In this document: positions 8,964-26,330 of the stretch, one piece after another | How positions within the stretch are numbered: the first letter of the stretch is position 1 | Layout: every line of letters starts with the position of its first letter | NCBI GenBank assembly: GCA_949742895.1 | Contig: CATJRT010000063.1 | Location: forward strand, 1 to 27,125 | Direction of reading: 5' to 3' | From: an uncultured Eubacteriales bacterium | Lineage (GTDB): Bacteria; Bacillota_A; Clostridia; Oscillospirales; Oscillospiraceae | Length of the DNA: 27,125 nt | The notes under the pieces: generated by a model | The model's database searches: none | Seen by the model: only the letters and a program-made list of their open reading frames with translations | Told to the model about the DNA's origin: nothing | Position numbers and translations under genes: made by a program

Positions 8964-8987
8964 GTGTATCACGCTCCAGACAATGGT

Positions 8988-10753: not shown

Positions 10754-10775
10754 GGATGTTCCTCCCTTCCAAGGA

Positions 10776-10802
10776 GGGCGGGGCCGCAGGCTGGCCCCGC
10801 CC
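10776..10802 (-). other. Intercistronic GC hairpin between dctP and dctQ
   Basis: A perfect 10-bp stem (GGGCGGGGCC at 10776-10785 pairing with 10793-10802, loop of 7) lies in the 58-base dctP-dctQ gap, without a U-tract. On its downstream side, minus-strand CCCTCCTT can pair imperfectly with the dctQ ribosome site AAGGGAGG. Likely protects the binding-protein message and lowers permease expression; inferred. Confidence 0.6.
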
Positions 10803-10811
10803 GGGTCAGGT

Positions 10812-11864
10812 TCAGCCGATCAGGTCGGCGAATTCTTCATAGATGGCGGCACAGTCAGAGTCCGTGTTCTTGAAAGCCTCGTGGAGGGGGGCGGAGGCGG
10901 CCTTCATGTCGTCCAGAAGCTGCTGGTCCGGTTCAATCTGTGTGGCGCCGGCCTCCACCATGGCGTCCATGGCCTCCTGGGAATACTTGGTCATATAGTC
11001 CACCTCGTAGTCGTTTACCACGTCCCTGGCGGTGGAAAGAATCAGGTCTTGTACGTTCTGGGGCAGGGTGTCCATCCAGTCGGCGCTGAAGAAGAAGCAG
11101 TTGACAAAGGCGCCGGCGGGACACAGGTTGATGTGTTTGGCGCTCTCATACAGGCCCTGGGTGTACCAGAAGGTGCAGTCGTTGAGCACACCTTCAATGG
11201 TGCCGTTCTGGAGGCCCACCGCTACGTCGCCGGGGTCCAGTGCGGTGACGGATGCGCCGTAGGCGGTCAGAGAGTTCTGAAGGGTGGGGGAGGGCAGGGT
11301 CCACAGCCGGTGGCCGTTGAAGTCGCCGATCTTCTCAATGGGGAAGGTAGACAAAATGTAGGAGTTGCCGCCCAGCAGCCAGCCGCCTACCTTGAAGCCC
11401 TTGTTATAGAGGTACTCGTCCAGGCTGGTGCCGTTGGACAGAATTTTTTGGGCCTGGGCGGCGGCTGTGCCGTCGGTGTCGAACAGGAAGGGCAGGTCCA
11501 GGATGGCGATGGCGGGGGCGTAAGAGGCGAAGTAGGAGGAGGGGATGAGCACGCCCTCAATGTCGCCGTTCTGTACACCCTCAATCATCTGAGGCGCGGT
11601 GCCCAGAGTGCTGGTGGGGTACAGCTCCACAGTGATGGCGCCGTTGGAGGCGGCCTCGATGCGGGACTTGAACTCCTCCATGGTTACGTTCTGCTGGTGC
11701 TTGCCGCCAGTGGGGGTGCCCAGGCGGATGGTGTAGCTGCCAGTGATTTCGGTGTCACTGCCGGGCTGGGTGCTGTTGCCGGGGTTTTCGCCGGAGCCGC
11801 AGGCGCACAGCAGCAGGGACAGCGTCATTGCTGTGGCAAGGATCAGGGCCAGTTTCTTTTTCAT
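10812..11864 (-). CDS. dctP: TRAP transporter solute-binding lipoprotein (DctP family)
   Basis: A 350-residue protein with a lipoprotein signal (lipobox ending LCAC22) and a Thr/Ser/Pro-rich linker, then the DctP fold: 'IRLGTPTGGKHQQNVTMEEF', 'VELYPTSTLGTAPQMIEGVQNG' and 'LDLPFLFDT'. The stretch 'GHRLWTLPSPTLQNSLTAYGAS' aligns with the family segment GLKIRxP. The arginine that normally binds the substrate carboxylate is therefore replaced by Trp188, unless the neighbouring Arg186 takes its place. Further signs are 'VGLQNGTIEGVLND', equivalent to ALQTGVVDGQEN. GGAAGG precedes ATG 11864. First gene of the operon and divergent from a PucR-type regulator, which probably controls it. Confidence 0.9.
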   Translation of the reverse strand: MKKKLALILATAMTLSLLLCACGSGENPGNSTQPGSDTEITGSYTIRLGTPTGGKHQQNVTMEEFKSRIEAASNGAITVELYPTSTLGTAPQMIEGVQNGDIEGVLIPSSYFASYAPAIAILDLPFLFDTDGTAAAQAQKILSNGTSLDEYLYNKGFKVGGWLLGGNSYILSTFPIEKIGDFNGHRLWTLPSPTLQNSLTAYGASVTALDPGDVAVGLQNGTIEGVLNDCTFWYTQGLYESAKHINLCPAGAFVNCFFFSADWMDTLPQNVQDLILSTARDVVNDYEVDYMTKYSQEAMDAMVEAGATQIEPDQQLLDDMKAASAPLHEAFKNTDSDCAAIYEEFADLIG

Positions 11865-12105
11865 CTTAATTGCCTTCCTTTCATACCGGTCTCAGATGGT
11901 AGTGGTCAGGCGCAGCCACCCTGAAACAGGACGTGCGGCGGCTTCGCCTGTTAAAAATCTATCAAAAAAGAAGGGTCGATTCATTAGAGCATTTGACAAT
12001 ATTTTACCGACGTCCCCGGCGGGATTATTGTAGGATTTGCAAATTGTCTTCATCTTACTCCCAAAAGGCGGAGACAGCCGGCCTGGGGAGATATGCGCTT
12101 GCCGG
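11865..12105. promoter_or_regulatory. Divergent control region between dctP and the PucR-type regulator
   Basis: No gene is visible. On the dctP side I see no good sigma-A promoter; the best -10 on the minus strand is TACAAT (12032-12027), without a matching -35, which fits an activator-dependent promoter. A perfect 10-base palindrome ATTTGCAAAT lies at 12035-12044 directly upstream of that -10, and GACAAT (11995-12000) and ATTGTC (12043-12048) form a spaced inverted repeat. These are candidate regulator sites only. Confidence 0.35.
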
Positions 12106-12134
12106 TTGAAAACGGCGGGAATACAGGTTATACT
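12106..12134 (+). promoter_or_regulatory. Promoter of the regulator-fumarase operon
   Basis: TTGAAA (12106-12111) and TATACT (12129-12134) with a 17-base spacer. The transcript would begin around 12141, giving a leader of about 55 bases before ATG 12196. Confidence 0.8.
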
Positions 12135-12195
12135 ATGGGCAGAGGCTTTGTATGACGGCGGATTTTGCCACTGTCCCGAAGAAAGGAGCGGCCCG

Positions 12196-13782
12196 ATGCT
12201 GAAAATATCCCTGAATATGATCTTGGACTGTCTGGAAGGGCTGAAGGTGGAGCCACTGTTTTCCACGGAGGACGACCTGTTTTTCAGCGGTCTGCGCCTG
12301 TACGAGCGGGGGCAGGACCAGCTCTTGCCGGAAAACATCTATATGTGCCGGGGAGAGGAGCTGACCGGCGAAGCGGCGGACAGCGGCTGCTGCTTTTTGT
12401 GCGTTTCCCCTATGCCGGAGGATATTCGAGAGAAGCTTGGGGGCAGGCAGCTTGTGCTGGTGGAGGGAGAGGAGGCCGGGCTGGCTCGGGTATTCAACCT
12501 GGTGCAAAGCTTGTTCACCGACCTGCGGGAATGGCACCAGGCAATGCACGTCTCCCTCATCCAGAACAACGACGTGCAGGAGCTGATGGACCTGAGCGAG
12601 AGCGCCATCGGCAACCCCATTGTGCTGGGGGCCCGGGGCTTCAAGCTGCTGGCTCACACCCGCCATATCGAGACGGACGACGAAATTTACAACGAGCTGG
12701 TGTCCCATGGCTACCACACCCGGCAGAGCATTGAACGGCTGACCAAAAACCGCCAGGTAGACAGCATCAAAAAGGCCAGCGTTCTGGATATCACCTTCCC
12801 CCTGCCCCAGATGACCCGATACCAGACTGTGACCAGGACCTTTTACATGAACGGCGTGCCCTTCGCCTATCTGCGGATGATTTGCAGCAGCTACCCGCCC
12901 TCCAAGAGTCTGGCGGAGCGGTTCAGCCTGCTGTCCGAATGTGTGGAGCTGTACCTGCACAGCCGCTATTCTGAGGGAAGCATTAACAAATATATGTACG
13001 AGTACGTGCTGGTGGAGCTCATCGAGAAAAAGATCAGGGACGACGAGCTGGACGAGCGCATCCGCTGCGTGGGGCTGCGCCGGGATTCGGAGTACCAGCT
13101 TTTGAAGATTATTTTCCAGGATGAGGCCAACACCTCCCTGAGCTATGTGCTGGAGCAGCTTCTTACTACCTTCCCGGAGGCCCGGCCCTTTGCTTACGAC
13201 GGGGATATTGTGATGCTGATGAACTACGAGAGCAAATACCGGCAGGCGGAGGCCCGGAAGAGCAGCCAGCTCAAGCTGCTTGGGGATTTTCTGGACTATC
13301 ACAAGGCATACTGCGGCATGAGTACCGTGTTCCGCTCCCTGATGAACGTCAGCGACGCCTATGTTCAGGCCACGGTGGCCATCGAGATTGGGCGGAAGCT
13401 TCAGCGAAAGGGGGTTCCAGTGCCTGACACCGGGGACGGTTGGGTGTTCGATTACCGGGACTACTACATCTACCACCTGATTGACGCCTGCGCAGATCAG
13501 GTGCGGTTGGGCAGCCTGTGCGACGGGCAGCTCCTGGCCATCCGGGAACAGGATGAGCAGAAACACACCCAGTATGCCAACCTGCTGTATACCTATCTGA
13601 TGAGTGAGTGCAAGCCCACCGACACCGCACGGGCGCTGCATATGCACCGCAACAATGTCATCTATCATGTGGAGCGGCTCAGTGAGCAGCTTGGGGTTGA
13701 CCTGGAGGACCCGGAAACCCGGCTACGCCTGCTGCTGTCCTTCAAGGTAATGGACCTGATGCAGTGTCTGCCGCCGCTATGA
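12196..13782 (+). CDS. PucR/CdaR-type transcriptional regulator
   Basis: ATG 12196 follows AAAGGAG (12182-12188). The 528-residue protein ends in the PucR C-terminal helix-turn-helix: 'TDTARALHMHRNNVIYHVERL' followed by 'LGVDLEDPETRLRLLLSF'. This module, with the RNNVIYH-type recognition helix, is specific for PucR/CdaR activators. The N-terminal ~300 residues are a sensor portion that I cannot assign firmly. The middle includes 'GNPIVLGARGFKLLAHT', resembling a GAF/PAS-like pocket often seen in this family. PucR relatives usually sense a catabolic substrate or intermediate. It is transcribed away from dctP and together with the dehydratase genes 33 bases downstream, so it most likely controls this locus. 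Confidence 0.85.
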   Translation: MLKISLNMILDCLEGLKVEPLFSTEDDLFFSGLRLYERGQDQLLPENIYMCRGEELTGEAADSGCCFLCVSPMPEDIREKLGGRQLVLVEGEEAGLARVFNLVQSLFTDLREWHQAMHVSLIQNNDVQELMDLSESAIGNPIVLGARGFKLLAHTRHIETDDEIYNELVSHGYHTRQSIERLTKNRQVDSIKKASVLDITFPLPQMTRYQTVTRTFYMNGVPFAYLRMICSSYPPSKSLAERFSLLSECVELYLHSRYSEGSINKYMYEYVLVELIEKKIRDDELDERIRCVGLRRDSEYQLLKIIFQDEANTSLSYVLEQLLTTFPEARPFAYDGDIVMLMNYESKYRQAEARKSSQLKLLGDFLDYHKAYCGMSTVFRSLMNVSDAYVQATVAIEIGRKLQRKGVPVPDTGDGWVFDYRDYYIYHLIDACADQVRLGSLCDGQLLAIREQDEQKHTQYANLLYTYLMSECKPTDTARALHMHRNNVIYHVERLSEQLGVDLEDPETRLRLLLSFKVMDLMQCLPPL

Positions 13783-13815
13783 CCGGCAAAGCGAACGAGA
13801 AAGGAAGGGAACGTT

Positions 13816-14649
13816 ATGAGAGAACTGAACGCCAAAGCCATTGCCGAAGCTGTGGCCCGGCTGTGTATCCGAGCCAATACCTGTCTGCCCCAGGATGTGA
13901 AGAACGCCATAGCCCGTGCCCGTCAGGAGGAGGATTGGCCTGCTGCCCGGGAAATCCTGGACCGCATCATCGAAAACAGCAGCATTGGAGGTGGCTTTCC
14001 CATCTGCCAGGATACAGGGATGGCCTGCGTGTTTCTGGAGGTGGGCCAGGACATACACATCGACGGCGACCTGTTTCAGGCCGTTAACGAGGGGGTGCGC
14101 AGGGGATATGCAGAGGGTTATCTGCGTAAGTCTGTGGTTGGTGACCCACTGGAGCGGGTAAACACCGGAGACAATACCCCTGCCATGCTTTACACGGAGC
14201 TGGTCCCTGGCGAACGGGTGGCTGTCACGGTGGCCCCCAAGGGCTTCGGCAGCGAGAATATGAGCCGAATCGCCATGCTCAAGCCATCCGACGGATTAGA
14301 GGGAGTCAAGCGCTTCATTCTGGATACGGTGGAGCAGGCGGGGCCAAACCCATGTCCCCCCATCGTGGTGGGGGTTGGCATTGGCGGCACCTTCGACAAG
14401 TGTGCCCTTCTGGCAAAAAAGGCGCTGCTGCGGGAGTTGAATGCTTCCAGCCCCCAGCCCTTCTATGCGGAGTTGGAGCGAGAGTTGTTGGAAAGAATCA
14501 ATGCGCTTGGCATTGGCCCCCAGGGGTTCGGTGGGCGGACCACTGCTTTGGCGGTCCACATTGAAACTATGCCCACCCACATTGCAGGGCTACCCTGCGC
14601 CGTGAACATCAACTGCCATGTGGCCCGCCACGCAACGGAGGTGCTTTGA
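13816..14649 (+). CDS. Fumarate hydratase/tartrate dehydratase alpha subunit (class I, Fe-S)
   Basis: The 277-residue protein matches the N-terminal half of class I fumarases. It has 'FPICQDTGMACVF' (Cys64), 'VVGVGIGGTFDKCALLAKKALLRE' (Cys196) and a C-terminal 'GFGGRTTALAVHIE...INCHVARH' (Cys267). The three cysteines are good candidates for the [4Fe-4S] ligands. 'VNTGDNTPAMLYTELVPGE' and 'APKGFGSENMSRIAMLKPSDG' are also conserved in the family. With the beta subunit it would interconvert fumarate and malate, or dehydrate L-tartrate to oxaloacetate; the two activities cannot be told apart by eye. AAGGAAGGG precedes ATG 13816. The locus also contains a TRAP transporter and a regulator, which favours a catabolic dehydratase. 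Confidence 0.9.
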   Translation: MRELNAKAIAEAVARLCIRANTCLPQDVKNAIARARQEEDWPAAREILDRIIENSSIGGGFPICQDTGMACVFLEVGQDIHIDGDLFQAVNEGVRRGYAEGYLRKSVVGDPLERVNTGDNTPAMLYTELVPGERVAVTVAPKGFGSENMSRIAMLKPSDGLEGVKRFILDTVEQAGPNPCPPIVVGVGIGGTFDKCALLAKKALLRELNASSPQPFYAELERELLERINALGIGPQGFGGRTTALAVHIETMPTHIAGLPCAVNINCHVARHATEVL

Positions 14650-14650
14650 T

Positions 14651-15220
14651 ATGACCAGATCTATCACCGCCCCCCTTGACGCCGGGACCGCCCGCTCCCT
14701 GCGCTCCGGGGACAGCGTGCTGCTCAGCGGAATCATCTACACAGCCCGGGACGCGGCCCATAAGCGCCTGTGCGAGCTGGCGGCAAGGGGAGAGCCTATG
14801 CCCTTTCCTATGGAGGGGGCCGTTATTTACTACGTGGGGCCTACGCCCGCCCGTCCCGGACAGCCCATCGGCTCCGCCGGGCCCACCACCAGCTACCGCA
14901 TGGACACCTACGCGCCTACCCTGTTACGGCTGGGGGAGCTGGGCATGATTGGAAAGGGTAAGCGGGGTGCAGAAGTCATCGAGGCCATGAGGGAGACCGG
15001 AGCGGTATACTTTGGGGCCATCGGCGGGGCAGGGGCTCTGCTGGCCCGGTGCGTCAAGTCGGCGGAGCTGGTATGCTATGAGGACCTGGGGGCGGAGGCC
15101 GTCCGGCGGCTGGAAGTAAAAAACCTTCCCCTCACCGTGGTCATCGACAGCTTGGGAAACAACCTCTATGAGACAGGACGGGCCGCCTATCTGGCCCAGC
15201 GGCAGGAGGAGACTTCCTGA
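14651..15220 (+). CDS. Fumarate hydratase/tartrate dehydratase beta subunit (class I)
   Basis: A 189-residue protein corresponding to the C-terminal half of class I fumarases: 'SGIIYTARDAAHKRL', 'YVGPTPARPGQPIGSAGPTTS' then YRMDTYAP, 'GMIGKGKRG' and 'YFGAIGGAGALLA'. These form the swivelling domain that completes the active site. ATG 14651 starts one base after the alpha-subunit stop, with GGAGGTG at 14638-14644. An upstream ATG at 14618 lies inside the alpha gene and lacks support. It is the last gene before a terminator. Confidence 0.92.
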   Translation: MTRSITAPLDAGTARSLRSGDSVLLSGIIYTARDAAHKRLCELAARGEPMPFPMEGAVIYYVGPTPARPGQPIGSAGPTTSYRMDTYAPTLLRLGELGMIGKGKRGAEVIEAMRETGAVYFGAIGGAGALLARCVKSAELVCYEDLGAEAVRRLEVKNLPLTVVIDSLGNNLYETGRAAYLAQRQEETS

Positions 15221-15240
15221 AAAATCCATATGGAAAAACC

Positions 15241-15270
15241 GGCGGCAGGTCTTTGGGCCTGCCGCCTTTT
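15241..15270 (+). terminator. Terminator of the regulator-fumarase operon
   Basis: GGCGGCAGG (15241-15249) pairs with CCTGCCGCC (15258-15266) around an 8-base loop and is followed by TTTT. It lies 20 bases after the beta-subunit stop. Confidence 0.88.
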
Positions 15271-15311
15271 CACTGGCTAAAAGCTGTAACTGAACTGTAA
15301 TTATTGCGTTG

Positions 15312-15340
15312 TTGACAGTGTCGACTGGTGTACCATAGTA
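15312..15340 (+). promoter_or_regulatory. Possible promoter of the truncated repressor gene
   Basis: TTGACA at 15312-15317 is followed by a weak -10 (CATAGT at 15334-15339, 16-base spacing). The -35 is nested in a short dyad, GACA-G-TGTC at 15314-15322, which could be an operator. About 100 bases without genes separate it from ATG 15444. Confidence 0.4.
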
Positions 15341-15443
15341 AGAGCCTGTCCCGGAATTAGACGTGCATGGGTAATGCAGTCAGATTTTACGCTGGGCAGG
15401 GCGATTTGGCGTAGGAATACTTTGCCGACAGGAGGAAAATGAC

Positions 15444-15548
15444 ATGGAACCAAGTAAACTGACGTCCAGCGAATGGAGCGTGCTTGCGTGTCTGTGGGAG
15501 GACAGTCCCCGCACGGCCATGCAGCTCTCCCCTGCACTGCTTGATTGA
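15444..15548 (+). pseudogene. Truncated BlaI/MecI/CopY-family repressor (N-terminal remnant)
   Basis: After a strong ribosome site (AGGAGG at 15430-15435) a 34-codon frame begins MEPSKLTSSEWSVLACLWED and ends at TGA 15546-15548. The sequence 'LTSSEWSVLACLWEDSPRTAMQL' is the first winged-helix segment of BlaI/MecI/CopY repressors (xLTxxExxVMxxLW), which are normally about 120-130 residues. The rest of the DNA-binding domain and the dimerisation domain are absent from all frames downstream, where a promoter and cutC follow. It is therefore a remnant; start, ribosome site and perhaps promoter remain, so a short peptide could still be made. Confidence 0.7.
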
Positions 15549-15574
15549 CAGAATGCAGTAGTATACATTATAAT
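15545..15574 (+). promoter_or_regulatory. Strong promoter of cutC, overlapping the repressor remnant
   Basis: TTGACA (15545-15550) and TATAAT (15569-15574) with an 18-base spacer. The -35 overlaps the stop codon of the truncated repressor. A near-perfect dyad, GTAGTAT and ATAATAC at 15558-15564 and 15570-15576, covers the -10 and could be an operator. Confidence 0.85.
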
Positions 15575-15624
15575 ACGTGAAACTGGCCGGGGGCCGGCAA
15601 TACATTGACTGGGAGATGAACGGC

Positions 15625-16377
15625 ATGGGTAAAGTGCTTTTGGAGGTCTGCTGCGGCAGTGCGGACGACGTGATCCAGGCCCACAAGGCGGGGGCGGACC
15701 GGGTCGAGCTAAACAGCGACCTGTTTCATGGTGGTCTGACTCCTACGATAGGGGAGCTGATCGTGGCCAAGCGGGAGACCGGGATGCAAGTCATGACCAT
15801 GGTACGGCCAAGGGAGGGCGGCTTCTGCTACACCCAGGCGGAGTTCGACACGGCGGTGGAGGATGCGAAGCTGCTGCTGGCCCACGGCGCGGACGGCCTG
15901 GTGTTCGGGTTCCTCCATGCGGACGGTACGCTGGACAGGGAGCGCACCCGGATATTGGCGGAGTTAGCCCAGGCGGCAGGGAGGGAGACGGTGTTCCACC
16001 GGGCCATCGATGTGGTTCCAGACTGGCGGGAGGCCCTGGACTGCCTGATCGGGCTGGGGGTGACTCGGGTACTCACCAGCGGGCAGGAGCCAGATGTCTC
16101 CCAGGGGACGGAGACCGTGAGGGAGATGATCGAATATGCCGCCGGACGTATCCAGATTTTGCCCGGCGCGGGCATTACTGCCCGGAATATGGACCGGGTA
16201 ATCGGGCAGACCGGATGCAATCAGATCCATCTTGCCGCGCATATGGCTCAGACCGACCCGTCTGTGCGAAACAACCGGGCCATCTATTTTGGCGGCTGCC
16301 TCTACCCGCCGGAGGACCGTTTCAGCGTGGTCGACAGCGGTTATATCGGCGGAATGGTGAAACATTTGGCGCGTTAA
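15625..16377 (+). CDS. cutC: CutC family protein
   Basis: A 250-residue TIM-barrel protein with the family opening 'LLEVCCGSADDVIQAHKAGA' and DRVELNSDLFHGGLTPT, then 'MVRPREGGFCYT', 'GADGLVFGFLHADGTLD', 'VFHRAIDVV', 'VTRVLTSGQEPDVSQGTE' and 'ILPGAGITARN'. The length matches the family. CutC was named for copper homeostasis in Escherichia coli, but later work questioned that role, so its function is best left open. ATG 15625 is preferred (GGGAG at 15611-15615); ATG 15616 and GTG 15577 are alternatives with poor spacing. It is a single gene; no clear terminator follows. The 144 bases after it hold nothing recognisable. Confidence 0.9.
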   Translation: MGKVLLEVCCGSADDVIQAHKAGADRVELNSDLFHGGLTPTIGELIVAKRETGMQVMTMVRPREGGFCYTQAEFDTAVEDAKLLLAHGADGLVFGFLHADGTLDRERTRILAELAQAAGRETVFHRAIDVVPDWREALDCLIGLGVTRVLTSGQEPDVSQGTETVREMIEYAAGRIQILPGAGITARNMDRVIGQTGCNQIHLAAHMAQTDPSVRNNRAIYFGGCLYPPEDRFSVVDSGYIGGMVKHLAR

Positions 16378-16521: not shown

Positions 16522-16550
16522 TTGACACGTCAAAAGATTGTGGGTATAAT
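16522..16550 (+). promoter_or_regulatory. Perfect consensus promoter of the Opp-like operon
   Basis: TTGACA (16522-16527), 17 bases, TATAAT (16545-16550): both hexamers and spacing are ideal. Transcription would start about 300 bases before the binding-protein gene. Confidence 0.9.
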
Positions 16551-16859: not shown

Positions 16860-19112
16860 ATGAAGAAGATTTTAAGCCTGGTGCTGGCTCTGGCCATGGT
16901 TCTGAGTCTGTTCGCCTGCGCGCCCAATGCAGACAACAACGAGAGCCAGAACCCTGTCCAGAACAGCGAGCCTGCGGGCGACGAGAACTCTGCGGCTCCC
17001 GTGGAGCCCGGCGAGTTCACCCCGCTCACCTACGACTATGAGGAGCTGTTCGATCCCGCTATGGGCGAGTTCTATGAGATGTACAGCGAGGCCCGCCAGG
17101 AGCTGGACGACATGGACCTGCGTTATGCCAAGATGGCTCTGGCCGAGGGCAAGCTGCTGGGTACCGGCATGATGCTGCCCGATACCGCCAAAGGCGGCAG
17201 CTACGCCATGAGCCGCGTGGCGCCCCGCACCGTCAGCGGCGTGCTGTACGGCAACGACTCCGACCGCTTCCATCAGGCCATTCTGACCACCGAGCTGATC
17301 AAGGCTTCCGACCGTACCGCCATGGTGGACAAGTGGCGCGAGGTGGAGACCGCCGACGAGTATGAGGCGTGGGCCAAGCAGTACCTGGTGGACCAGGGCT
17401 ACACCCTGAAGGACACCTACAACTACATTTACAGCTCCGACCCCATTACCTGGGATATCTTCGCCAGCTCCAACGCCACCGAAGGCGAGGTGCTGGTCAA
17501 CACCTTCGACGGCCTGATGGAGTACGATATCAAGGATACCCTCCAGCCCGCGCTGGCTGAGAGCTACACTGTGTCCGAGGACGGCCTGGTTTACACCTTC
17601 AAGCTCCGCGAGGGCGTTATCTGGACCGATTCCCAGGGCCGCGAGGTCGATAAGGTGACTGCCGACGACTTCGTTGCCGGTATGCAGCACCTGATGGACG
17701 CCAAGGGCGGCCTGGAGGAGCTGCTGTCCGGCGTCATTGTCGGCGCTACCGGCTACATCGGCGGCGAGATCACCGACTTCTCCCAGGTCGGCGTGAAGGC
17801 CGTGGACGAGTACACCGTGGAATACACGCTGGAGGCTCCCACCCCCTATTTCATGACCATGCTGGGCTACTCCATCTTCGCCCCCATGAGCCGCAGCTAC
17901 TATGAGTCCCAGGGCGGCAAGTTCGGCAAGGAGTATAAGACTGAGGACTCCGGCCGCACCTACGGTACCGGCCCGGACCACATCGCCTACTGCGGTCCCT
18001 ACCTGGTGACCAACGCCACCGCCAACAACACCATTGTGTTCCAGGCCAGCCCCAGCTACTGGAATGCCGACAAGATCAACGTCAAGACCCTGACCTGGGT
18101 GTTCCAGGACGGCAGCGAAGTGACCAAGACCTACACCGACCTGAAGTCCGGCGTGGTGGACGGCGCCAGCCTGAACTCCAGCACCATTAAGATGGCCCGT
18201 GACGAGGGACTGTTCGATGAGTATGTCTACACCAGCGCCACCGACGCCACCAGCTACTATGCTTCCTTCAACCTGGCCCGCCTGATGTTCCACAACTACA
18301 ATGACCCGGCCAAGCTGGTCTCCACCCAGAGCCACGGCAGCGTGGACGAGATCCTGGCTGCGCGGAAAAACGGCGAGGAGGCCAACACCTCCGACATCGA
18401 GGACGACGCCGCCCGCACCCATATTGCGGTCAACAACCGCCACTTCCGTCTGGCTATGATCATGGCCCTGGACCGCGGCGACTGGAACGCCCAGATCTAC
18501 AGCGACGAGCTGAAGTTCAACCCCATGCGCAACACCTATGTCCCCGGTACCTTCGTCCACATTGAGAACGAGGTCACTGTGGACGTCAACGGCACTCCCA
18601 CCACCTTCCCCGCCGGTACCCAGTACGGCGAGATCGTTCAGGCTCAGATCACCGCTGACGGCCTGCCCATCAAGGTGTGGGATACCTCCACCGGCGCTGA
18701 GGACCCCTCCACCGGCTTTGACGGCTGGTACAACCTGAACGCCGCCAAGGAGCAGTTCGAGCTGGCCAAGCAGGAGCTGGCCGCTGTGGGCGTTGAGGTC
18801 TCCGCGGAGAACCCCATCCAGATCGACTTCCCCTTTGCCGGTCAGGACGAGCACTACGCCAACCGTGCCCAGGTGTTCGTGAAGTGCATGAACGAGGCGT
18901 TCGGCGGCGCGATTCAGGTCAACCTGCTGGAGGGCGCCAGCTTCCAGGAGATGAACGATTCCAGCTACTTCCCCGAGTCCGGCGCTGAGATGAACTTCGA
19001 CTACACCATAGCTTTCGGCTGGGGTCCCGACTGGGGCGACCCGAACAGCTATCTGGATCAGATCTTGCCTTACGGCGAGGGCTTCATGCAGAAGGGCTTC
19101 GGTCTGTGGTAA
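16860..19112 (+). CDS. Family 5 (OppA-like) solute-binding lipoprotein, apparently circularly permuted
   Basis: A 750-residue lipoprotein (signal ending LFAC20) with a low-complexity linker to about residue 50. The normal start of the family 5 fold appears only near 187: 'YNYIYSSDPITWDIFASSNA', 'VLVNTFDGLMEYD', 'LQPALAESYTVSEDGLVYTF' and 'LREGVIW'. The protein ends at 'GWGPDWGDPNSYLDQILPYG' plus 11 residues, whereas family members normally continue for about 100 residues. Residues 60-147 (helix 'EFYEMYSEARQELDD', then 'DLRYAKMALAEGKLLGTGMM' and LP) resemble that missing C-terminal part (eA..etD..kRy..l..AE.lLl....iP). An extra segment lies near 485-525. It should capture peptides or similar ligands outside the membrane for the permeases encoded downstream. 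Codon use is strongly biased, suggesting high expression. Confidence 0.85.
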   Translation: MKKILSLVLALAMVLSLFACAPNADNNESQNPVQNSEPAGDENSAAPVEPGEFTPLTYDYEELFDPAMGEFYEMYSEARQELDDMDLRYAKMALAEGKLLGTGMMLPDTAKGGSYAMSRVAPRTVSGVLYGNDSDRFHQAILTTELIKASDRTAMVDKWREVETADEYEAWAKQYLVDQGYTLKDTYNYIYSSDPITWDIFASSNATEGEVLVNTFDGLMEYDIKDTLQPALAESYTVSEDGLVYTFKLREGVIWTDSQGREVDKVTADDFVAGMQHLMDAKGGLEELLSGVIVGATGYIGGEITDFSQVGVKAVDEYTVEYTLEAPTPYFMTMLGYSIFAPMSRSYYESQGGKFGKEYKTEDSGRTYGTGPDHIAYCGPYLVTNATANNTIVFQASPSYWNADKINVKTLTWVFQDGSEVTKTYTDLKSGVVDGASLNSSTIKMARDEGLFDEYVYTSATDATSYYASFNLARLMFHNYNDPAKLVSTQSHGSVDEILAARKNGEEANTSDIEDDAARTHIAVNNRHFRLAMIMALDRGDWNAQIYSDELKFNPMRNTYVPGTFVHIENEVTVDVNGTPTTFPAGTQYGEIVQAQITADGLPIKVWDTSTGAEDPSTGFDGWYNLNAAKEQFELAKQELAAVGVEVSAENPIQIDFPFAGQDEHYANRAQVFVKCMNEAFGGAIQVNLLEGASFQEMNDSSYFPESGAEMNFDYTIAFGWGPDWGDPNSYLDQILPYGEGFMQKGFGLW

Positions 19113-19146
19113 GCAGGCCGTTCTGAAAAGGACCTTGTAATACTGC

Positions 19147-19184
19147 GCGTGCAGGAGAATGGTGCGTGCCATTCTCCTGCACGC
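19147..19184 (+). other. Intercistronic hairpin 1 after the binding-protein gene
   Basis: A perfect 16-bp stem (19147-19162 with 19169-19184, loop of 6) lies 34 bases after the binding-protein stop. No U-tract follows, so it is more likely a message-stabilising or processing element than a full terminator. Confidence 0.7.
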
Positions 19185-19205: not shown

Positions 19206-19271
19206 TCCCTTACGGGGGAGGAAACGGAGTGTCAGAACTCTGAATATTACCGTTTCCTCCCCCGTGAGGGG
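19206..19271 (+). other. Intercistronic hairpin 2 before the OppB-like gene
   Basis: A 22-bp stem (19206-19227 with 19250-19271, two or three G-U pairs, inner 16 pairs perfect) encloses a 22-base loop with a nested TCAG/CTGA mini-stem. There is no U-tract. It ends 32 bases before the OppB-like start. It could limit read-through or protect the upstream message. Confidence 0.7.
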
Positions 19272-19303: not shown

Positions 19304-20878
19304 ATGGGAAAATACTTAGTGAAACGCTTGCTGCATGGTGTGGTATCGGTCGTTCTGGTTGTTGCTATCGTAATGATAATGATCTACAGCTTGCTGGACG
19401 AGCGGCAGGTCTTTGTGGGCGATTCGACGTTTACTAAGACCAGCCTCAACGCCCGGACTGCATATATGTACTCCAAATGGGAGGAGTTCGGGTATCTGGA
19501 CTATGTGACATTTGCGGACTATATGAACGACCTCACCTACAGCGGTGAAATTGACGAGGAGACCCGTGCGGCTGCGGTATCTATTGGCCGGACGGAGGAA
19601 CAGGACACCGAGCTGACCCACGAATATGTGGAGAAGTTCAAGGACTATTATGAATCGCAGGGTTATACGACAGTGCGTTTGAATGCCGTCACGCAGGGCA
19701 AAAACAGTACCCGTCTGGCGGCTGGCGGACAGCAGCAGTTGTTTGTCTACAAGCACATTCCGCTGTATCAGCGTATGCTGACGTACTTCACCGGGCTGCT
19801 CAGTTTTGACAATATCCACTATGTAGAGGAGGATATTGGGGAACGTGGGCTGACCTTCACATTGCATGATCCGCTTGCGGGAGGCAAGTTCGCTCCGGCA
19901 ATTATCGGAAACGGCACGTATCACAAGTACCTCTTTTATGTTGACTCGGTTTTTCCCTATATTCACCAGAATATGGTATCCATCAACCTGGGTACGTCTT
20001 ACACCGTAAACAACGGCGTGGATGTATTTACCACCATGACCAGGAGCCAGGGCTCCTATGTGCAGAGCACAGTCACATTCCCGACGGGGTTTGTGGAGAG
20101 CAGCGCCGATGATTTGCATACGGCCACATACCGGGCGAATTCCAGAGAGGGGAATCCTCTCAACGAGGCTCGATTTACGGATGATTATACCAATGTGGCC
20201 ACAATTCGAGGCGGTATGTCGAAGGTAGGCTACTCTTTTGTAATCGGCATTATTTCGGTTGCGCTTGCCTATCTGCTGGGTGTGCCGCTGGGTATTCTGA
20301 TGGCCCGTAAGAAGGACAAGCTGATCGATAAACTGGGTACGGTTTATATTGTGTTCATCATCGCGGTGCCCTCGCTGGCCTATATCTTCCTGTTCAAGGC
20401 CATCGGCGGCAAGATGGGTCTGCCCACTACCTTCAATATGGATTCCAGCAGCAAGCTGATGTTTCTGCTGCCCATCATTTCACTGGCGCTGCCCTCTGTG
20501 GCAAACCTGATGAAGTGGATTCGCCGGTATATGATCGACCAGATGAACTCGGACTATGTGAAGTTTGCGCGGTCCGGGGGCCTGTCGGAGGGAGAAATCT
20601 TCTCCAAGCATATTTTGAAAAATGCTGCCATCCCCATTGTGCAGGGCATACCGGGTAGTGTGCTGGGGGCGCTGGTAGGTGCGATCATCACAGAGCGTGT
20701 GTACGTGGTTCCCGGTGCCGGCAACCTGCTGACCGAGGCCATCAATAAGTATGATAACGGTGTTATCGTAGGCGTTACGCTGTTCTACGCGATATTGTCC
20801 GTGGTATCCATTATCCTGGGCGATATTCTGATGGCGACAGTTGACCCGAGAATTTCGTTCTCGACGAAGGATAGGTGA
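19304..20878 (+). CDS. OppB-like ABC permease with a large extracellular domain
   Basis: 524 residues, compared with about 310-340 for usual OppB/DppB. The first membrane helix is at 10-30. Residues 31 to about 305 form a soluble, presumably extracellular segment containing a charged helical part (80-120) and 'LYQRMLTYFTGLLSFDN'; 'INLGTSY' (228-233) recalls the G-D-L-G-x-S element of OppB. The normal permease core follows, with helices near 306-333, 345-366, 383-404, 447-470 and 487-512. Its EAA loop is 'ARSGGLSEGEIFSKHILKNA' (422-441). The ribosome site before ATG 19304 is weak (TTAGGTG), which with the upstream hairpins suggests lower synthesis than the binding protein. It forms the channel with the OppC-like protein encoded next. 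Confidence 0.87.
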   Translation: MGKYLVKRLLHGVVSVVLVVAIVMIMIYSLLDERQVFVGDSTFTKTSLNARTAYMYSKWEEFGYLDYVTFADYMNDLTYSGEIDEETRAAAVSIGRTEEQDTELTHEYVEKFKDYYESQGYTTVRLNAVTQGKNSTRLAAGGQQQLFVYKHIPLYQRMLTYFTGLLSFDNIHYVEEDIGERGLTFTLHDPLAGGKFAPAIIGNGTYHKYLFYVDSVFPYIHQNMVSINLGTSYTVNNGVDVFTTMTRSQGSYVQSTVTFPTGFVESSADDLHTATYRANSREGNPLNEARFTDDYTNVATIRGGMSKVGYSFVIGIISVALAYLLGVPLGILMARKKDKLIDKLGTVYIVFIIAVPSLAYIFLFKAIGGKMGLPTTFNMDSSSKLMFLLPIISLALPSVANLMKWIRRYMIDQMNSDYVKFARSGGLSEGEIFSKHILKNAAIPIVQGIPGSVLGALVGAIITERVYVVPGAGNLLTEAINKYDNGVIVGVTLFYAILSVVSIILGDILMATVDPRISFSTKDR

Positions 20879-20885: not shown

Positions 20886-21851
20886 ATGGATTATGATTTG
20901 AGTAAATATGGGACTGAAAAGGAGCTGTTTGCCCCGGTGGAGCACAGCGGCCTTGAGTCCGAGAAAATTACAGCGCCCCGGTATTCCTACTGGCAGTCCG
21001 TGTTCCGTGTGTTTTTCCGCAATAAACTGAACATTGTCATCCTGAGTGTCCTTGTGCTGTTGATTGCATTTGCGTATATCTATCCTGCCCTGACCGAATA
21101 TGGCCGTTATGACAATTTGACGGACCCCAACGCCAAGCATTTATCTCCTGGAGCCGCACTTCAGTACTTTGGCTGGAGCATCAAGTGGATTCTGGGCAGT
21201 GGGGCTTCCGGACAGTCCACCTTTGACGCGATTTGGAACGGTTCGAGAATTTCCATTTCTTTGGCGTTTATCTGCGCCGCGATTAACATGACGGTAGGCG
21301 TGCTCGTGGGCGCGATTTGGGGCTTCTCCAAAAAAGTGGACGTTATTATGATGGAAGTCTACAATACTATCGGTAATGTACCCTATATTCTGTTGATTTC
21401 TGTGATGGTGATGCTTTTTACCGCCAGCTTTTGGACTATGGTATTTGCGTTGACCATTACCGGCTGGCTGGGGATTGCGTTTTTTATCCGAACGCAGGTG
21501 GTCATTATTCGTGACCGGGAATATAACCTGGCCTCCAGGTGTTTGGGGACCTCTACGATCAAAATCGCCATGAAAAATATCCTGCCCTTTATGACCTCCG
21601 TCATTGTTACGTTGCTGGCTACAGAAATTCCCTCTTATATTTCCTACGAGGTGTTTCTGTCCTACATTGGTATGGGTCTTTCCGATATGTCTCTGGGCCG
21701 TCTGATTTTCGAGGCGGAAAGCGCCATGGTTACGCCGGGGTGGGAATTTGAATTCTGGAGTCCGGTGGCGATTGCGTCCATCATCACGGTTGTGCTCTAT
21801 GTGATTGGTCAGAATCTCGGTGATGCATCTGACCCCAGGACACATATGTAA
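20886..21851 (+). CDS. OppC-like ABC permease
   Basis: 321 residues from ATG 20886, eight bases after the OppB-like stop. An N-terminal cytoplasmic segment with 'SYWQSVFRVFFRNKLNIVIL' precedes the first helix, as in OppC. The short extracellular part ends 'ILGSGASGQSTFDAIWNGSR', a variant of the LGTDxxGRDxxSRxxxG motif. Later helices include 'ISISLAFICAAINMTVGVLV', and the EAA loop is 'LASRCLGTSTIKIAMKNILP'. Unlike its neighbours it has the usual size. It should pair with the OppB-like subunit in the membrane. Confidence 0.92.
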   Translation: MDYDLSKYGTEKELFAPVEHSGLESEKITAPRYSYWQSVFRVFFRNKLNIVILSVLVLLIAFAYIYPALTEYGRYDNLTDPNAKHLSPGAALQYFGWSIKWILGSGASGQSTFDAIWNGSRISISLAFICAAINMTVGVLVGAIWGFSKKVDVIMMEVYNTIGNVPYILLISVMVMLFTASFWTMVFALTITGWLGIAFFIRTQVVIIRDREYNLASRCLGTSTIKIAMKNILPFMTSVIVTLLATEIPSYISYEVFLSYIGMGLSDMSLGRLIFEAESAMVTPGWEFEFWSPVAIASIITVVLYVIGQNLGDASDPRTHM

Positions 21852-21863
21852 GGGGTGGCCGCT

Positions 21864-23612
21864 ATGGAAGAGAAAAATGTATTGCTGTCCATCAAGGATC
21901 TCGAGGTCAAGTTCCGCGTCCGCGGAAGAATTCTGACGGCCATCCGCGGAGTTTCTCTTGATATTTACGAGGATGAGTCTATCGCTATCGTGGGTGAATC
22001 TGGTTCCGGTAAGTCCGTGTTTACCAAGACCTTTGCAGGTATGCTGGATTCCAACGGTTTTATCAGCAATGGACACATCATCTTTAACGACGCAGAGCTT
22101 GCCGATACGGTAGTGGCGCTGAATGGAACGGCGCACAAGATCATCAGCCATGTGGAAAACAAGCTGAATGAGTACTCCAGCCTGGAGCTGGGGGCGGCTA
22201 CCTACCGGAAAATTCTGGAGCTGGAATCGGAAAAGAAGGAAAAGAGTGGATTGAGCAGCGAGGAGCAGGCCCAGGCGGAGGAGGAGCTGAAGGAGCTCCA
22301 GGCTAAACGGGCAGATGCGTTCAATTTGAAGCAGACGCTGGATTCTGCCCAGGATAAGGAGCAAATTAAGCAGGTGGCTCAATCTATCCGCGAGTACGAT
22401 GCGCAAATCAAGGAGTTGAAAAAGCGCGGTGAGCAGATGGCTAAGGATAAGGCTCACGCTGTTTCGGCAGATGCGGATTATATGAAGCGGTATCGTGAGA
22501 AGCTGGCTGCGCTGAATAAACAATACGAGCAGGAGACGAAGGGAAAGGTTTCCGATGAGGTCATAGTGCGCAACCGGATTTTGGCAAAGGAAGTCTATTT
22601 GTCTGTAGGCCGTTACAACATCAAGCGGCGGATGCAGGCGGTGTCGAATTTGTTGAAAGCGCTTAAAAAGGCCATGCAGTTTGGGGTGGACCTTAACGAT
22701 GACGCTCAGCGCAACGCAGTGTTTGACACTGTGACCTTCCGGGTGCGTTATCTGGACGAGACAGCGGAAAAGCTGCACGGCACCTGCGTGCTGAACCTGG
22801 CCAATATGAAATATTCCAAGGACTGGAGCCAGGTCCGCGGTCGCCGGATTGCCACCGTATTCCAGGATCCCATGACGTCGCTGAATCCCATTATCACCAT
22901 CGGCAAACAGATTACCTCCATTATTCTGAAGCATCAGGACTGCACCGAGGCGGAGGCCCGGCGGCGGGCATTGGATCTGATGCACAAGGTGGGTATTCCC
23001 AACGCTGCCGCCCGTTTTGACGACTATCCGTTCCAGTATTCCGGTGGTATGCGCCAGCGCATCGTCATCGCCATCGCGCTGTCCTGTCAGCCCAAGATTC
23101 TGATTTGCGACGAGCCGACCACCGCGTTGGACGTTACAATTCAGGCTCAAATCCTTCAGCTCATCAAGGACTTGCAAAAGGAATTTCACTATACCATCGT
23201 GTTCATCACCCATGACCTTGGGGTAGTGGCCAACATTGCCGATCGGGTGGCGGTGCTATATGCCGGTCAAATCATTGAGCTGGGTACGGTTCGGGAAGTG
23301 TTCTATGACTCCCGCCATCCATATACCTGGGCGCTGCTCTCTTCGCTGCCTCAGTTGGCGCAGAAGGATACTAAGCTCTATTCCATTACTGGTACACCAC
23401 CCTCCCTGTATAACAACATTGTGGGCGATGCGTTTGCGCCAAGAAATCCCTATTGCTTGAAGATTGACACCGTGCTGGAGCCTCCCATGTTCCAGGTCAG
23501 TGAAACGCATTTTGCCAAAACGTGGCTTTTGGATCCCCGTGCGCCCGAAATTGAGAGGCCGGAGGGTATCCAAGATATCCACGAAAAGCTGATGCGGGCA
23601 TTCAATATTTAA
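21864..23612 (+). CDS. OppD-like ABC ATPase with a ~240-residue helical insertion
   Basis: 582 residues, against about 330-350 for normal OppD. Walker A is GESGSGKS (44-51), but the Q-loop ([12 protein letters not shown]334) comes about 240 residues later than usual. The insert, roughly 80-320, is rich in Lys, Glu, Gln and Ala with heptad-like stretches, for example '[20 protein letters not shown]', and is probably a coiled coil that projects from the ATPase. Later motifs are intact: signature YSGGMRQR (392-399), Walker B ILICDE (412-417) and H450. The OppD C-terminal region is present ('FAPRNPYC'), but most cysteines of the usual Fe-S-type motif are missing. I chose ATG 21864 (AAGGGG 9 bases upstream); GTG 21855 is the alternative. 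Confidence 0.88.
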
Positions 23613-23625: not shown

Positions 23626-24930
23626 GTGAGTCAGGAAAAAATGAACGCGTCGCGGTCCGGCATCCTGCCGGAGCATGGACCGCTGGATGAAAACGGCAGA
23701 GAAATTCTGTTGTCGCTGAAAGATGTTGATATAACGTTTGGCAAAGGCGACAGCGCAGTTAGGGCAGTGCAGGAGGCGTCCTTTGATATTTACAAAGGTG
23801 AAACGTTCTCTTTGGTGGGCGAGTCCGGTTCCGGAAAAACCACTGTGGGACGTGCTGTCATTCGGGTTAATCCCCTGGCCAAGGGCGAAATCCAGTATAA
23901 GGGTGTGCGTATTTCCGGAAAAATTCCCCATGCGCTTGACCGGGAAGTGATCCGTAATATCCAGATGGTGTTCCAGGACCCGGCGGCGTCGCTGAACGAG
24001 CGCGCTACGGTGGATTACATCATTTCGGAGGGGCTTTATAACTTCCACCTGTTTGAGAATGAGGCGGACCGAGTGCATAAGGTGGAAACCATGATCGAGG
24101 AGGTGGGCCTGCTCCCTGAGCATCTGACCCGGTATCCCCATGAGTTTTCCGGTGGACAGCGCCAGCGTATTGGCATTGCCCGTGCCATGGTCATGGAGCC
24201 GGAGCTGGTAGTTGCGGACGAGCCGATTTCTGCTCTTGATGTGTCTATCCGTGCCCAGGTGCTCAACCTGATGAAGAAGTTCCAGGAGGAGAAGGGGCTG
24301 ACTTATCTGTTCATCGCCCATGATCTGTCCGTAGTGCGCTTCATCTCGGACCGGATCGGCGTTATTTACAAGGGACGCATTGTGGAGGTGGCAGAGGCAG
24401 AGGAGCTGTTCAACTTCCCGTTGCATCCCTACACCCATTCGTTGATTTCCGCTATCCCGATTCCCGATCCAGAGTTGGAGAAAAACAAGGTGTTGTATAC
24501 CTATGACCCAACTGTACACGACTATTCGGAGGATAAGCCGGAGTTTGTGTGCGTTGGTCACGATCACTATGTGTATGGAAATAAAAAGGAAATTGAGGAG
24601 TACAAGGCTATCCGGGAGAAGGATATTCCCCTCAAGCCTATTACCATTCGTGACCCCAATGCTCCGAACGAGGCCCATAAGGAAGCGGAGGATTCCAGCG
24701 TGTCTGAGGAGGAGTTCCTGATTCATCCGGCCCACGACACAGGGAGCATTTGGTACAAGATATTGTCTTTCTTCCTGCCTGTTCTGGGATTGATTGCTAT
24801 GGTTGTGTTCAACCATTTCCATCACACCAGGAACGCTAAGGCGTGCAAGAAGGGAGCAATCGCCGGTCTTATTACCTTGGCAGTCATTATTTTGATATTC
24901 CTGCTCCTGATTGCGTTGACGGTGATTTGA
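23626..24930 (+). CDS. OppF-like ABC ATPase with two C-terminal membrane helices
   Basis: 434 residues. The ATPase domain is normal: Walker A GESGSGKT (65-72), Q-loop [11 protein letters not shown] (Q117), signature FSGGQRQR (174-181), Walker B VVADE (195-199), H-loop His232, and the OppF ending '[20 protein letters not shown]'. After residue ~290 comes an acidic linker of about 85 residues. Two hydrophobic helices follow (about 375-396 and 410-433), with Lys-rich '[20 protein letters not shown]' between and in them. An ATPase subunit of an importer is normally a peripheral protein, so a membrane anchor is unusual. The helix pair looks like the two-helix module found in many small clostridial membrane proteins. 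GTG 23626 is preferred (AAGGAGGG at 23611-23618); ATG 23641 is possible. Confidence 0.88.
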
Positions 24931-24931
24931 A

Positions 24932-26200
24932 TTGGGCCGGACAGTGAAGGACAATAGGGATCTGCCCCATCCCCGCCCGGTCAAAAAGATAGAGCTTTCT
25001 GCGGACAATACAAAACGGCGGATTATTGCGGCGGTTCTGTTTCTGCTGATTGGTGCGGTGGCGCTGGCCTATGCGTTTTTTAACCTGATTACTCCGGAAG
25101 CGGGATGGCAGGCCATTGAGGTCAGCAGCTCAGCGGGTGTTACCTGCGCCGATGAATTCGTATTTCTCTATGAGCTGGGCAGCAGCGGGGCGGCGGTCCA
25201 AGCGGAAAACCGTGCTGTTTCAATGCTCTATACGCAGGCGGCGCAGAAAGCATACCAGTTGTTTAACAGCGACGAGCGATTTGACGGCGTTACCAATGTA
25301 TATGACATGAACCGGCAGCCCAATCAGGTTTTGAAGGTTGACGAAACACTTTACCGGGCGTTTAATACAATTAAAACGGATGGGGACCGGACTATTTTTC
25401 TTGGTCCAGTTTATGCCCGGTATAATGATCTGTTTTTCTGTGAGGACGACGCACAGCTTATGGATTTTGATCCCCGGCTCAGCGAGAGTGTCCGTCAGGA
25501 GTACAGTGAGCTGGCTGCCTTTGCCGTTGATCCCACAGCCATCGATTTGCAGCTTTTAGGAGAAAATCAGGTACGTCTCTATGTGTCGGAGAATTATCTT
25601 GCCTATGCGGAGCAGGTGGGTATCGTAGACTTCATTGATTTTTCATGGATGAAAAATGCCTTTATTGTGGATTATTTGGCCCAGGTGATGACGGAGCATG
25701 GCTATACACATGGTTCCATCTCCAGCTATGACGGTTTCCTTTGCAACCTGGACGACAGGGATACCCTGTATTCCCTCAATCTGTTTGATCGTGTAGGCGG
25801 GGTTATTTATCAGGCGGCGTCCATGGAGTATGTTGGGGCAATGAGCGTGGTGTATTTGCGTGATTACCCCATCAACGATATGGATGAACTGCATTACTAC
25901 GAGTTGCGCAACGGCGAAATCCGCACACCCTACTTGGACGTTCAGGATGGGTTGTGCAAGAGTGCAGTGGGCGATTTGACCGCCTATTCCAGGACCTTGG
26001 GCTGTGCCGAGATATTGCTGCAAATCAGTCCGATTTATATTGCGGATGAGTTCCAAAAGCAGGCGCTTGATTCGTTGTCCGAAAGAGAGATTTATTCGAT
26101 TTACTGCGAAAACCAGGTGATTTTTGGAAACGACCCGGAATTGTCTCTTACCAGACTGTACGAAACAGACGAGCTCCATTACAGTGCAGTGCAAAAATGA
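24932..26200 (+). CDS. Membrane-anchored extracellular protein, possibly a diverged ApbE-like domain
   Basis: No firm family. The 422-residue protein starts at TTG 24932, one base after the OppF-like stop (GGTGA upstream); GTG 24944 is an alternative. A short basic N-terminus and one helix (30-52) imply that residues 53-422 are outside. Some stretches recall ApbE flavin transferases: 'LYTQAAQKAYQLFNSD', 'NVYDMNRQPNQVLKVDETLY', 'TIFLGPVYARYNDLFFCEDD', and 'SWMKNAFIVDYLAQVMTEHG', which would match the KGYAVD helix. The metal and FAD-binding residues are not clearly kept, so enzyme activity is doubtful. As the last gene of the Opp-like operon it is probably an accessory subunit, for example a ligand-delivery or permease-interacting protein. 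Base composition is more AT-rich than in the binding-protein gene. Confidence 0.7.
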   Translation: MGRTVKDNRDLPHPRPVKKIELSADNTKRRIIAAVLFLLIGAVALAYAFFNLITPEAGWQAIEVSSSAGVTCADEFVFLYELGSSGAAVQAENRAVSMLYTQAAQKAYQLFNSDERFDGVTNVYDMNRQPNQVLKVDETLYRAFNTIKTDGDRTIFLGPVYARYNDLFFCEDDAQLMDFDPRLSESVRQEYSELAAFAVDPTAIDLQLLGENQVRLYVSENYLAYAEQVGIVDFIDFSWMKNAFIVDYLAQVMTEHGYTHGSISSYDGFLCNLDDRDTLYSLNLFDRVGGVIYQAASMEYVGAMSVVYLRDYPINDMDELHYYELRNGEIRTPYLDVQDGLCKSAVGDLTAYSRTLGCAEILLQISPIYIADEFQKQALDSLSEREIYSIYCENQVIFGNDPELSLTRLYETDELHYSAVQK

Positions 26201-26258: not shown

Positions 26259-26301
26259 TGCAGAAGAGGAGAAACATTGAATTCTCAATGCCTTCAACGG
26301 C

Positions 26302-26330
26302 TTGAACCTCTATAAAATTTGTGATATAAT
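26302..26330 (+). promoter_or_regulatory. Promoter of the PAS-domain gene
   Basis: TTGAAC (26302-26307), 17 bases, and TATAAT (26325-26330) with a TGA extension just before the -10. The leader to ATG 26399 is about 62 bases. Confidence 0.85.

What the first reader, a model, noticed from the sequence alone, without database searches (positions are those of the whole stretch)
16860..19112. Solute-binding protein looks circularly permuted
The family 5 fold begins about 187 residues into the protein and the protein stops right after the GWGPDWGDPNSYLD motif, where about 100 further residues are expected. Residues 60-147 carry a pattern (EA..ELDD.DLRYAKMALAE..LL....MLP) that resembles exactly that missing C-terminal piece. 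Both termini of the normal fold lie in the same lobe, so moving the last segment to the front is structurally possible. The motif positions are read from the sequence; the permutation is inference. It would be an unusual architecture for an importer's receptor.
Basis: partly seen in the sequence, partly recalled or inferred. Interest (0 to 1): 0.8.

Follow-up and report, generated by a model that had tools for sequence, protein, structure and literature searches.

The report
Circularly permuted peptide-uptake receptor
A bacterial surface receptor for peptides has its usual last ~105 residues moved to the front of the protein, a rearrangement shared by a large family of related receptors and seen once more, probably independently, in a distant relative.

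Summary
ORF 16860-19112 (750 aa) is an Ami-type (SBP_bac_5) oligopeptide-binding lipoprotein in circularly permuted order. Residues 58-161 match the C-terminal ~100 residues of AmiA, AliB, AliC and AliD, and no other PDB chain below E 0.9; residues 182-750 match the rest. Rotating the query gives a collinear match across the join. No such segment is encoded downstream. All 240 listed relatives from two searches share the order. Of 13 permuted loci fetched with surroundings, 12 lead an OppBCDF operon and one is cut. P0359 carries the same permutation but is 71% identical to canonical-order P0340; trees favour a second origin, AU p 0.27, 0.09 or 0.03 by sampling. The cut maps to lobe 2, so the lipid tether moves from lobe 1 to lobe 2 (by published AliD domain limits). 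AlphaFold is confident (pLDDT 92, pTM 0.88), but without coordinates the moved segment's 3D place is inferred. A permuted sugar receptor (TpMglB-2) is known; my paper searches listed none in the OppA class.

The parts
16522..16550 (+). sigma-70-type promoter-like site TTGACA-17-TATAAT, 12 of 12, upstream of the SBP gene
   Evidence: consensus match only
16860..19112 (+). gene of the circularly permuted Ami-type oligopeptide-binding lipoprotein (750 aa)
16860..16919 (+). signal peptide with lipobox LFAC, Cys20
   Evidence: sequence; lipobox pattern in 235 of 240 listed permuted relatives
16920..17021 (+). low-complexity linker (residues 21-54), mostly low pLDDT
17031..17342 (+). moved segment 'TAIL' (residues 58-161), homologous to the C-terminal ~100 residues of AmiA/AliB/AliC/AliD
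17343..17402 (+). connector (residues 162-181) joining the old C-terminus to the old N-terminus; helix 165-178 in the model
17403..19109 (+). old N-terminal and middle part (residues 182-750) in canonical order
19017..19058 (+). GWGPDWGDPNSYLD motif (residues 720-733); W721 and D724 align with AliB W500 and D503, which bind the peptide N-terminus
19304..20878 (+). OppB-type permease, 524 aa, with an extra stretch at residues 33-261 (AmiC-like extracellular part, inferred)
20886..21851 (+). OppC-type permease (start chosen from the sequence; the listed ORF opens at 20841)
21855..23612 (+). OppD-type ATPase with an insert at residues 81-313
23626..24930 (+). OppF-type ATPase with a C-terminal extension 333-434

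Best explanation
It is the peptide receptor of an OppBCDF importer. The protein is a natural circular permutant of the Ami-type (cluster C) oligopeptide-binding fold. The last ~105 residues of the canonical chain (end of domain III in lobe 2, last part of domain I, first part of the extra C-terminal helix) now follow the lipoprotein signal. They lead through a short helical connector into the old N-terminus, and the chain ends in a lobe-2 loop just after the peptide-binding motif. It most likely folds into the same two-lobed receptor. It should bind peptides through D724 and W721 in lobe 2 and hand them to the OppB/OppC pore. The main mechanical change is that the membrane tether leaves from lobe 2 instead of lobe 1. 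The likely route is duplication of the gene in tandem, in-frame fusion, and loss of the outer ends. Shown: order, homology, conservation, operon. Inferred: 3D packing of the moved segment, ligand, effect of the tether, route.
Against: No coordinates were available, so placement of residues 58-161 on the AmiA frame was not measured. The covariation agreement is small (Spearman 0.0249; highest of 90 tail shifts 0.022; Neff 88 and 86), and the overlap of the top 200 pairs (3) is not above the shifted controls (maxima 4 and 5). No duplicated intermediate (TAIL-HEAD-MID-TAIL) was seen among 360 listed proteins. Ligand and transport are untested.
Confidence: 0.91

Rival explanations
1. The moved segment completes the fold in trans: the receptor is an obligate domain-swapped dimer, with residues 58-161 of one chain packing on the other.
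For: AliC, a relative by sequence and fold, crystallised as a domain-swapped dimer (PMC11192437 passages; entry title).
Against: The swap in AliC exchanges whole lobes, not this segment. A single chain is predicted with pTM 0.88 (a monomer job, so dimers were not tested). The connector between segment and core is short, 11-20 residues in 240 relatives.
Confidence: 0.05
2. The N-terminal segment came from another substrate-binding protein by gene fusion (a chimera), so the protein is a fusion rather than a permutant of one gene.
For: Neighbouring SBP genes occur in surveyed genomes (G721; G1159, G1218, G1251), and the segment diverges faster than the core in one pair (83% against 96% identity).
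Against: In the more recent case P0359, segment (67%) and core (71%) both have P0340 as closest canonical relative among the sequences in hand, as expected if one gene was rearranged. For the window's clade the event is too old to tell, and I built no tail-only tree.
Confidence: 0.1
3. A truncated receptor plus an unrelated N-terminal extension that looks like the missing part.
For: Pfam sees only the middle domain and nothing in residues 55-181.
Against: The tail profile has significant PDB hits only at AmiA-family C-termini; the alignment to canonical tails is almost gap-free over ~100 residues in 139 canonical rows; the order is conserved in 240 of 240 listed relatives.
Confidence: 0.02
4. 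Assembly or frameshift artefact in the window.
For: None found.
Against: Intact ORF, the same order in 240 listed proteins, including one from a 3.1-Mb contig named Roseburia sp. 831b (P0050), and in further genomes.
Confidence: 0.005

Closest known systems
AmiA / AliB / AliC / AliD, oligopeptide-binding lipoproteins of the pneumococcal Ami importer (cluster C SBPs)
   Same: Whole sequence homologous; lobe-2 W/D peptide-binding motif; lipoprotein; importer with a permease that has a large extracellular part (AmiC 498 aa; OppB here 524 aa); the tail includes part of the Ali-specific C-terminal helix.
   Different: Order permuted: the C-terminal ~105 residues come first, the termini lie in lobe 2, and the Ali C-terminal helix has become part of an internal connection (mapping). 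Partners OppD and OppF are longer than in 7 canonical operons.
TpMglB-2 (Tp0684) of Treponema pallidum, a circularly permuted glucose-binding protein ('Type Ic / Cluster Bc'; PMC4990184, abstract and passages seen)
   Same: Natural circular permutant of an ABC-importer receptor, lipid-tethered; permuted relatives also in Gram-positive gut bacteria.
   Different: Cluster B (sugar) fold, with three N-lobe strands at the C-terminal end. Here a cluster C peptide receptor has its C-terminal segment moved to the front. Independent events by all evidence here.
Canonical-order Ami-type SBPs (P0241-P0360 listing, L019/L057; source names include Erysipelotrichaceae, Peptoniphilaceae, Solobacterium)
   Same: Together with Ami/Ali-like L062 and L071, sister group in the core tree; L057 has the same operon order and a long OppB (498 aa).
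   Different: Order HEAD-MID-TAIL in 119 of 120 listed; the exception, P0359, is permuted.
Mollicutes Opp system (NCBIfam MMSYN1_0165-0169)
   Same: Window OppD matches NF043079 over 10-580 (718 bits, cut-off 740); the insert alone matches it weakly (E 3e-4).
   Different: The OppA family NF043077 matches weakly (115 bits, cut-off 650), and its order at the ends could not be decided.

Membership tests
SBP family 5 (Pfam PF00496, cluster C) | Match to the family model above the curated cut-off | tested here: met
   147.2 bits against 32.4
Ami-type oligopeptide-binding protein | Full-length homology to AmiA/AliB/AliC/AliD including the C-terminal segment | tested here: met
Ami-type oligopeptide-binding protein | Canonical order with the C-terminal segment and extra helix at the C-terminus | tested here: not met
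   Segment lies at residues 58-161, and no copy is found elsewhere in the window
Ami-type oligopeptide-binding protein | Trp and Asp of the lobe-2 motif that binds the peptide N-terminus | tested here: met
   W721 invariant and D724 at 90% or more in 101 rows; aligned with AliB W500 and D503
Ami-type oligopeptide-binding protein | Binds and imports oligopeptides | not testable with these tools
   Needs binding and uptake assays
Circularly permuted SBPs (TpMglB-2, 'Cluster Bc') | Receptor with permuted chain order | tested here: met
   At sequence level only
Circularly permuted SBPs (TpMglB-2, 'Cluster Bc') | N-lobe strands of the canonical chain found at the C-terminal end | tested here: not met
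   By sequence the opposite move: the canonical C-terminal segment is at the front (paper passages)

The most novel reading that the evidence does not exclude
Ami-type peptide receptors have been circularly permuted at least twice at the same lobe-2 loop. This was not by accident alone: moving the lipid tether from lobe 1 (domain I) to lobe 2 (domain III) changes how the receptor sits on the importer. Tether position would then be an evolvable setting of peptide importers, and P0359/P0340 would be a close pair in which the step can be retraced.
Probability: 0.3. Interest if true: 0.78.

Novelty: new variant of a known kind. Interest (0 to 1): 0.64.

Why it matters
Natural circular permutation of an importer receptor was known to me, and found in the papers searched, only for one sugar-receptor class. 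Here it is the shared state of a large clade of peptide receptors (source names include Roseburia, Fusicatenibacter, Acetatifactor and Lachnospiraceae), and the source names given say only substrate-binding protein. It shows that the fold tolerates a cut next to the peptide-binding motif and, by mapping, a tether on the other lobe, which bears on docking models and on biosensor design. The P0359/P0340 pair (71% core identity, opposite orders) makes the origin and cost of a natural permutation directly testable.

Tried and rejected
Truncation with the tail encoded downstream: rejected. Separate accessory domain: no Pfam family in residues 55-181 and in NCBIfam only a sub-cut-off hit (mycolic acid methyltransferase, E 0.066, 12.8 bits against 390), while the AmiA-family tail match explains the segment. 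Duplicated intermediates: none with two tails among 360 listed proteins. Plasmid carriage: 2297 plasmid records match, 0 cover 80% of the query at one place. Viral contigs: no relatives by the tool's pattern scan. Whether Mollicutes OppA is permuted: not decidable (one search found no NF043077 match at E 1e-30 in 199 genomes or the 14 controls; one search gave no NF043077 match for the tail piece). Single origin of all permutants: the core tree needs two changes and starred branches force two, but AU tests of one clade gave p 0.269 (core, 117 rows), 0.093 (core+tail, 72 rows) and 0.033 (core+tail, 85 rows); in the last two trees P0359 is the first branch of its canonical clade, with weak support (58 and 27), not deep inside it. 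So a second origin is favoured, not proven. Papers: ten searches listed no report of a permuted cluster C receptor; two searches listed only 20 of 62 and 10 of 6952, one search was poorly chosen, and the library lacks most subscription papers. Order-keeping structure aligners cannot show where the moved segment packs, so I did not claim it. My single genome-contig scan used one protein rather than the alignment and returned one locus, a poor use of the cap.

Full report
WHAT WAS CLAIMED AND WHAT IS THERE. The ORF at 16860-19112 (+) encodes 750 aa. It starts with a lipoprotein signal (MKKILSLVLALAMVLSLFAC, Cys20) and a low-complexity linker. Pfam finds SBP_bac_5 at 228-736 (147.2 bits, cut-off 32.4). 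phmmer against PDB sequences puts residues 185-460 on AmiA 14-279, 510-735 on AmiA 301-497 and, out of order, 67-161 on AmiA 523-620. The chain ends at residue 750, 17 residues after the GWGPDWGDPNSYLD motif.

ROTATION TEST. The protein rotated at residue 182 (182-750 followed by 55-181) matches AliB 6-608, AmiA 15-620 and AliC 12-617 collinearly, each in two successive stretches. The second (79.2 bits for AliB) runs across the artificial join, where the native order gave two separate stretches (51.1 and 13.6 bits). A canonical-order relative, P0340, used as a control gives one stretch, 54-658 to AliC 20-615.

THE MOVED SEGMENT. A profile of 17 permuted tails (A2) searched against all PDB chain sequences finds AliC 519-630, AliB 517-611, AmiA 523-624 and AliD 503-609, E 1.3e-11 to 1.2e-8; the two further hits have E 0.97 and 0.98. 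HHalign of 101 permuted tail rows (79 kept by the program) against 119 canonical proteins places it at columns 551-660 of 660, P 1e-13. In a joint alignment the 139 canonical rows fill about 100 tail columns with almost no gaps. A tail HMM built from canonical proteins finds, in all six frames of the window, only this protein's N-terminal segment with significance (37 bits, E 7.9e-11; next E 0.17), so nothing like it is encoded downstream.

WHERE THE CUT LIES. In AliD, lobe 1 is domain I (29-63, 191-296, 583-617) plus domain II (64-190). Lobe 2 is domain III (297-582). A C-terminal helix, 622-652, packs on lobe 1 and is called a hallmark of the Ali proteins (PMC11192437, passages seen by term search). 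Mapped, the window protein ends at AliD ~526 and its moved segment starts at ~528. The cut is therefore inside domain III, in lobe 2, and the segment runs to ~634, into the extra helix. The new ones are in lobe 2, so the lipid tether changes lobe (inference from this mapping). In AliB, W500 and D503 in lobe 2 hold the peptide N-terminus (same passages). By the numbering offset they align with W721 (invariant in A1) and D724 (90% or more).

HOW WIDESPREAD. In the window-protein search, 5755 proteins matched at E <= 0.001 among 7992 scored candidates; only the best 120 were listed, so the order of the rest is unknown. 120 of 120 listed have the order TAIL-HEAD-MID. So do 120 of 120 listed for the divergent permuted L035. 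Source names include Roseburia, Lachnospiraceae, Fusicatenibacter and Acetatifactor. Genome surveys at E <= 1e-50 (where only the few best candidates per genome were scored): 5 permuted and 8 canonical of 391 genomes of one class (order checked); 14 permuted (one split over two contigs) and 3 canonical of 299 in one family; 2 permuted and 9 canonical-start of 398 in the phylum (one of the 9, L066, is cut before the tail). In the family of G001 at E <= 1e-3, 1 of 60 genomes listed a permuted match and two a canonical-order one (G026, G032; the list was cut). With P0359 as query, 37 listed places in 11 of 170 genomes of the class of G1020 all start at query residue 163 or later; 30 of 30 loci tested from there are canonical. 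No genome listed both types at 1e-50. In the permuted relatives the conserved P-D/E-Y/W/F-G-D lies 25-29 residues from the C-terminus (229 of 240 have the pattern); in 119 canonical relatives, with a looser pattern, it lies 94-179 residues away.

OPERON. 12 of 13 permuted loci fetched with surroundings have SBP-OppB-OppC-OppD-OppF in the window's order; the thirteenth (L044) is cut by its contig end. Seven canonical loci have the same gene order. In stop-to-stop lengths, OppB is 525-582 aa with permuted SBPs against 317-361 (one 498); OppD 585-629 against 347-399; OppF 437-459 (11 of 12; one 342) against 314-349. OppC and OppD trees of 20 rows put the permuted operons' partners in one clade (95/92 and 98/94 support), next to L057, the canonical locus with the long OppB; L057 is a long branch, so that join is unsure. 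The paper's model of the Ami importer has the AmiC extracellular part wedged between the receptor lobes; OppB residues 33-261 here look equivalent (inference).

A SECOND PERMUTANT. The search with canonical L019 listed 119 canonical proteins and one permuted one, P0359 (688 aa, 69 member sequences). Its core is 71% and its tail 67% identical to canonical P0340, its first 20 residues 80%; its tail is 27% identical to the window's. Against AmiA it shows 167-665 to 12-502 and 57-153 to 521-620, i-E 1.8e-11. At its junction the old C-terminus (..AAEKLW) is followed by what reads like the canonical N-terminal linker (..YTGPREL..SREVQTMDY; P0340 has ..YTGPTEYVEATSREVQTMDY). This is what tandem duplication and fusion would leave. 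The window clade has a different junction, with an extra helix (consensus ELKGTGTYE.WAK.YL.EKGYTLKD). In the core tree of 122 rows, 63 permuted proteins form one clade (SH-aLRT 100), sister (92) to a canonical Ami-type clade in which P0359 is nested (98, 100). In the two core+tail trees P0359 stays inside that clade (100) but as its first branch, with weak support (58, 27). AU tests against one permuted clade gave p 0.269, 0.093 and 0.033 with 13 more canonical rows. Two origins are favoured, not proven. P0359's own contig was not available.

ROUTE. Neighbouring canonical SBP genes, the raw material for duplication-fusion, appear in G721, G1159, G1218 and G1251. No protein with two tails was seen among 360.

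HOW IT LIKELY WORKS. Lipid-tethered receptor, cleft between two lobes, peptide N-terminus held by D724/W721, delivery to OppBC with ATP hydrolysis by OppDF. This is the Ami mechanism. Only the homologies and motif were tested here; binding and uptake were not. Selection keeps the segment: dN/dS 0.18 (tail) and 0.09 (core) in one sister pair, L014/L015.

KNOWN OR NEW. A natural circular permutant of an importer receptor is known: TpMglB-2, a cluster B glucose receptor, for which 'Type Ic / Cluster Bc' was proposed (PMC4990184, abstract and passages seen). A term search of its main text finds no OppA, cluster C or oligopeptide. My ten paper searches listed no permuted cluster C receptor. Among solved chains listed for the window protein (60 of 77 shown) no best stretch begins before residue 179, so no solved permuted member appeared. 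I file this as a new variant of a known kind.

Noticed in passing
P0359 (688 aa), found by the L019 search: A permuted receptor 71% identical to a canonical-order one (P0340), with a junction that still reads as old C-terminus plus old N-terminal linker.
   Followed up: partly
21855-23612 (OppD residues 81-313): A ~230-residue charged, helical-looking insert inside the ATPase, present in the permuted operons and absent from the 7 canonical ones compared; weakly like Mollicutes OppD.
   Followed up: partly
23626-24930 (OppF residues 333-434): C-terminal extension with two membrane-like stretches on an ABC ATPase; 11 of 12 permuted operons have the long OppF; only a sub-cut-off family match.
   Followed up: partly
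19147-19184 and 19207-19270: Two strong inverted repeats (16 nt perfect; 21 nt, 95%) between the SBP gene and oppB; no terminator-like site was found there. Perhaps differential expression of receptor and permease.
   Followed up: no
G721:C63 (L038, L041); G1159, G1218, G1251: Neighbouring canonical SBP genes on one strand; those of G721 are interrupted by a stop or frame change.
   Followed up: no
16872-19172 (-): A 766-aa open frame runs antisense through the whole SBP gene, probably a codon-usage effect.
   Followed up: no
10650-11924 (+), 24932-26200 (+), 26294-27031 (-): Open frames without a Pfam match at E 1e-4; the one at 24932 follows oppF directly.
   Followed up: no
2094-16377: Neighbours: Na/Pi cotransporter with PhoU, two ABC exporter halves, DctM, PucR-type regulator, fumarate hydratase, CutC.
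   Followed up: no
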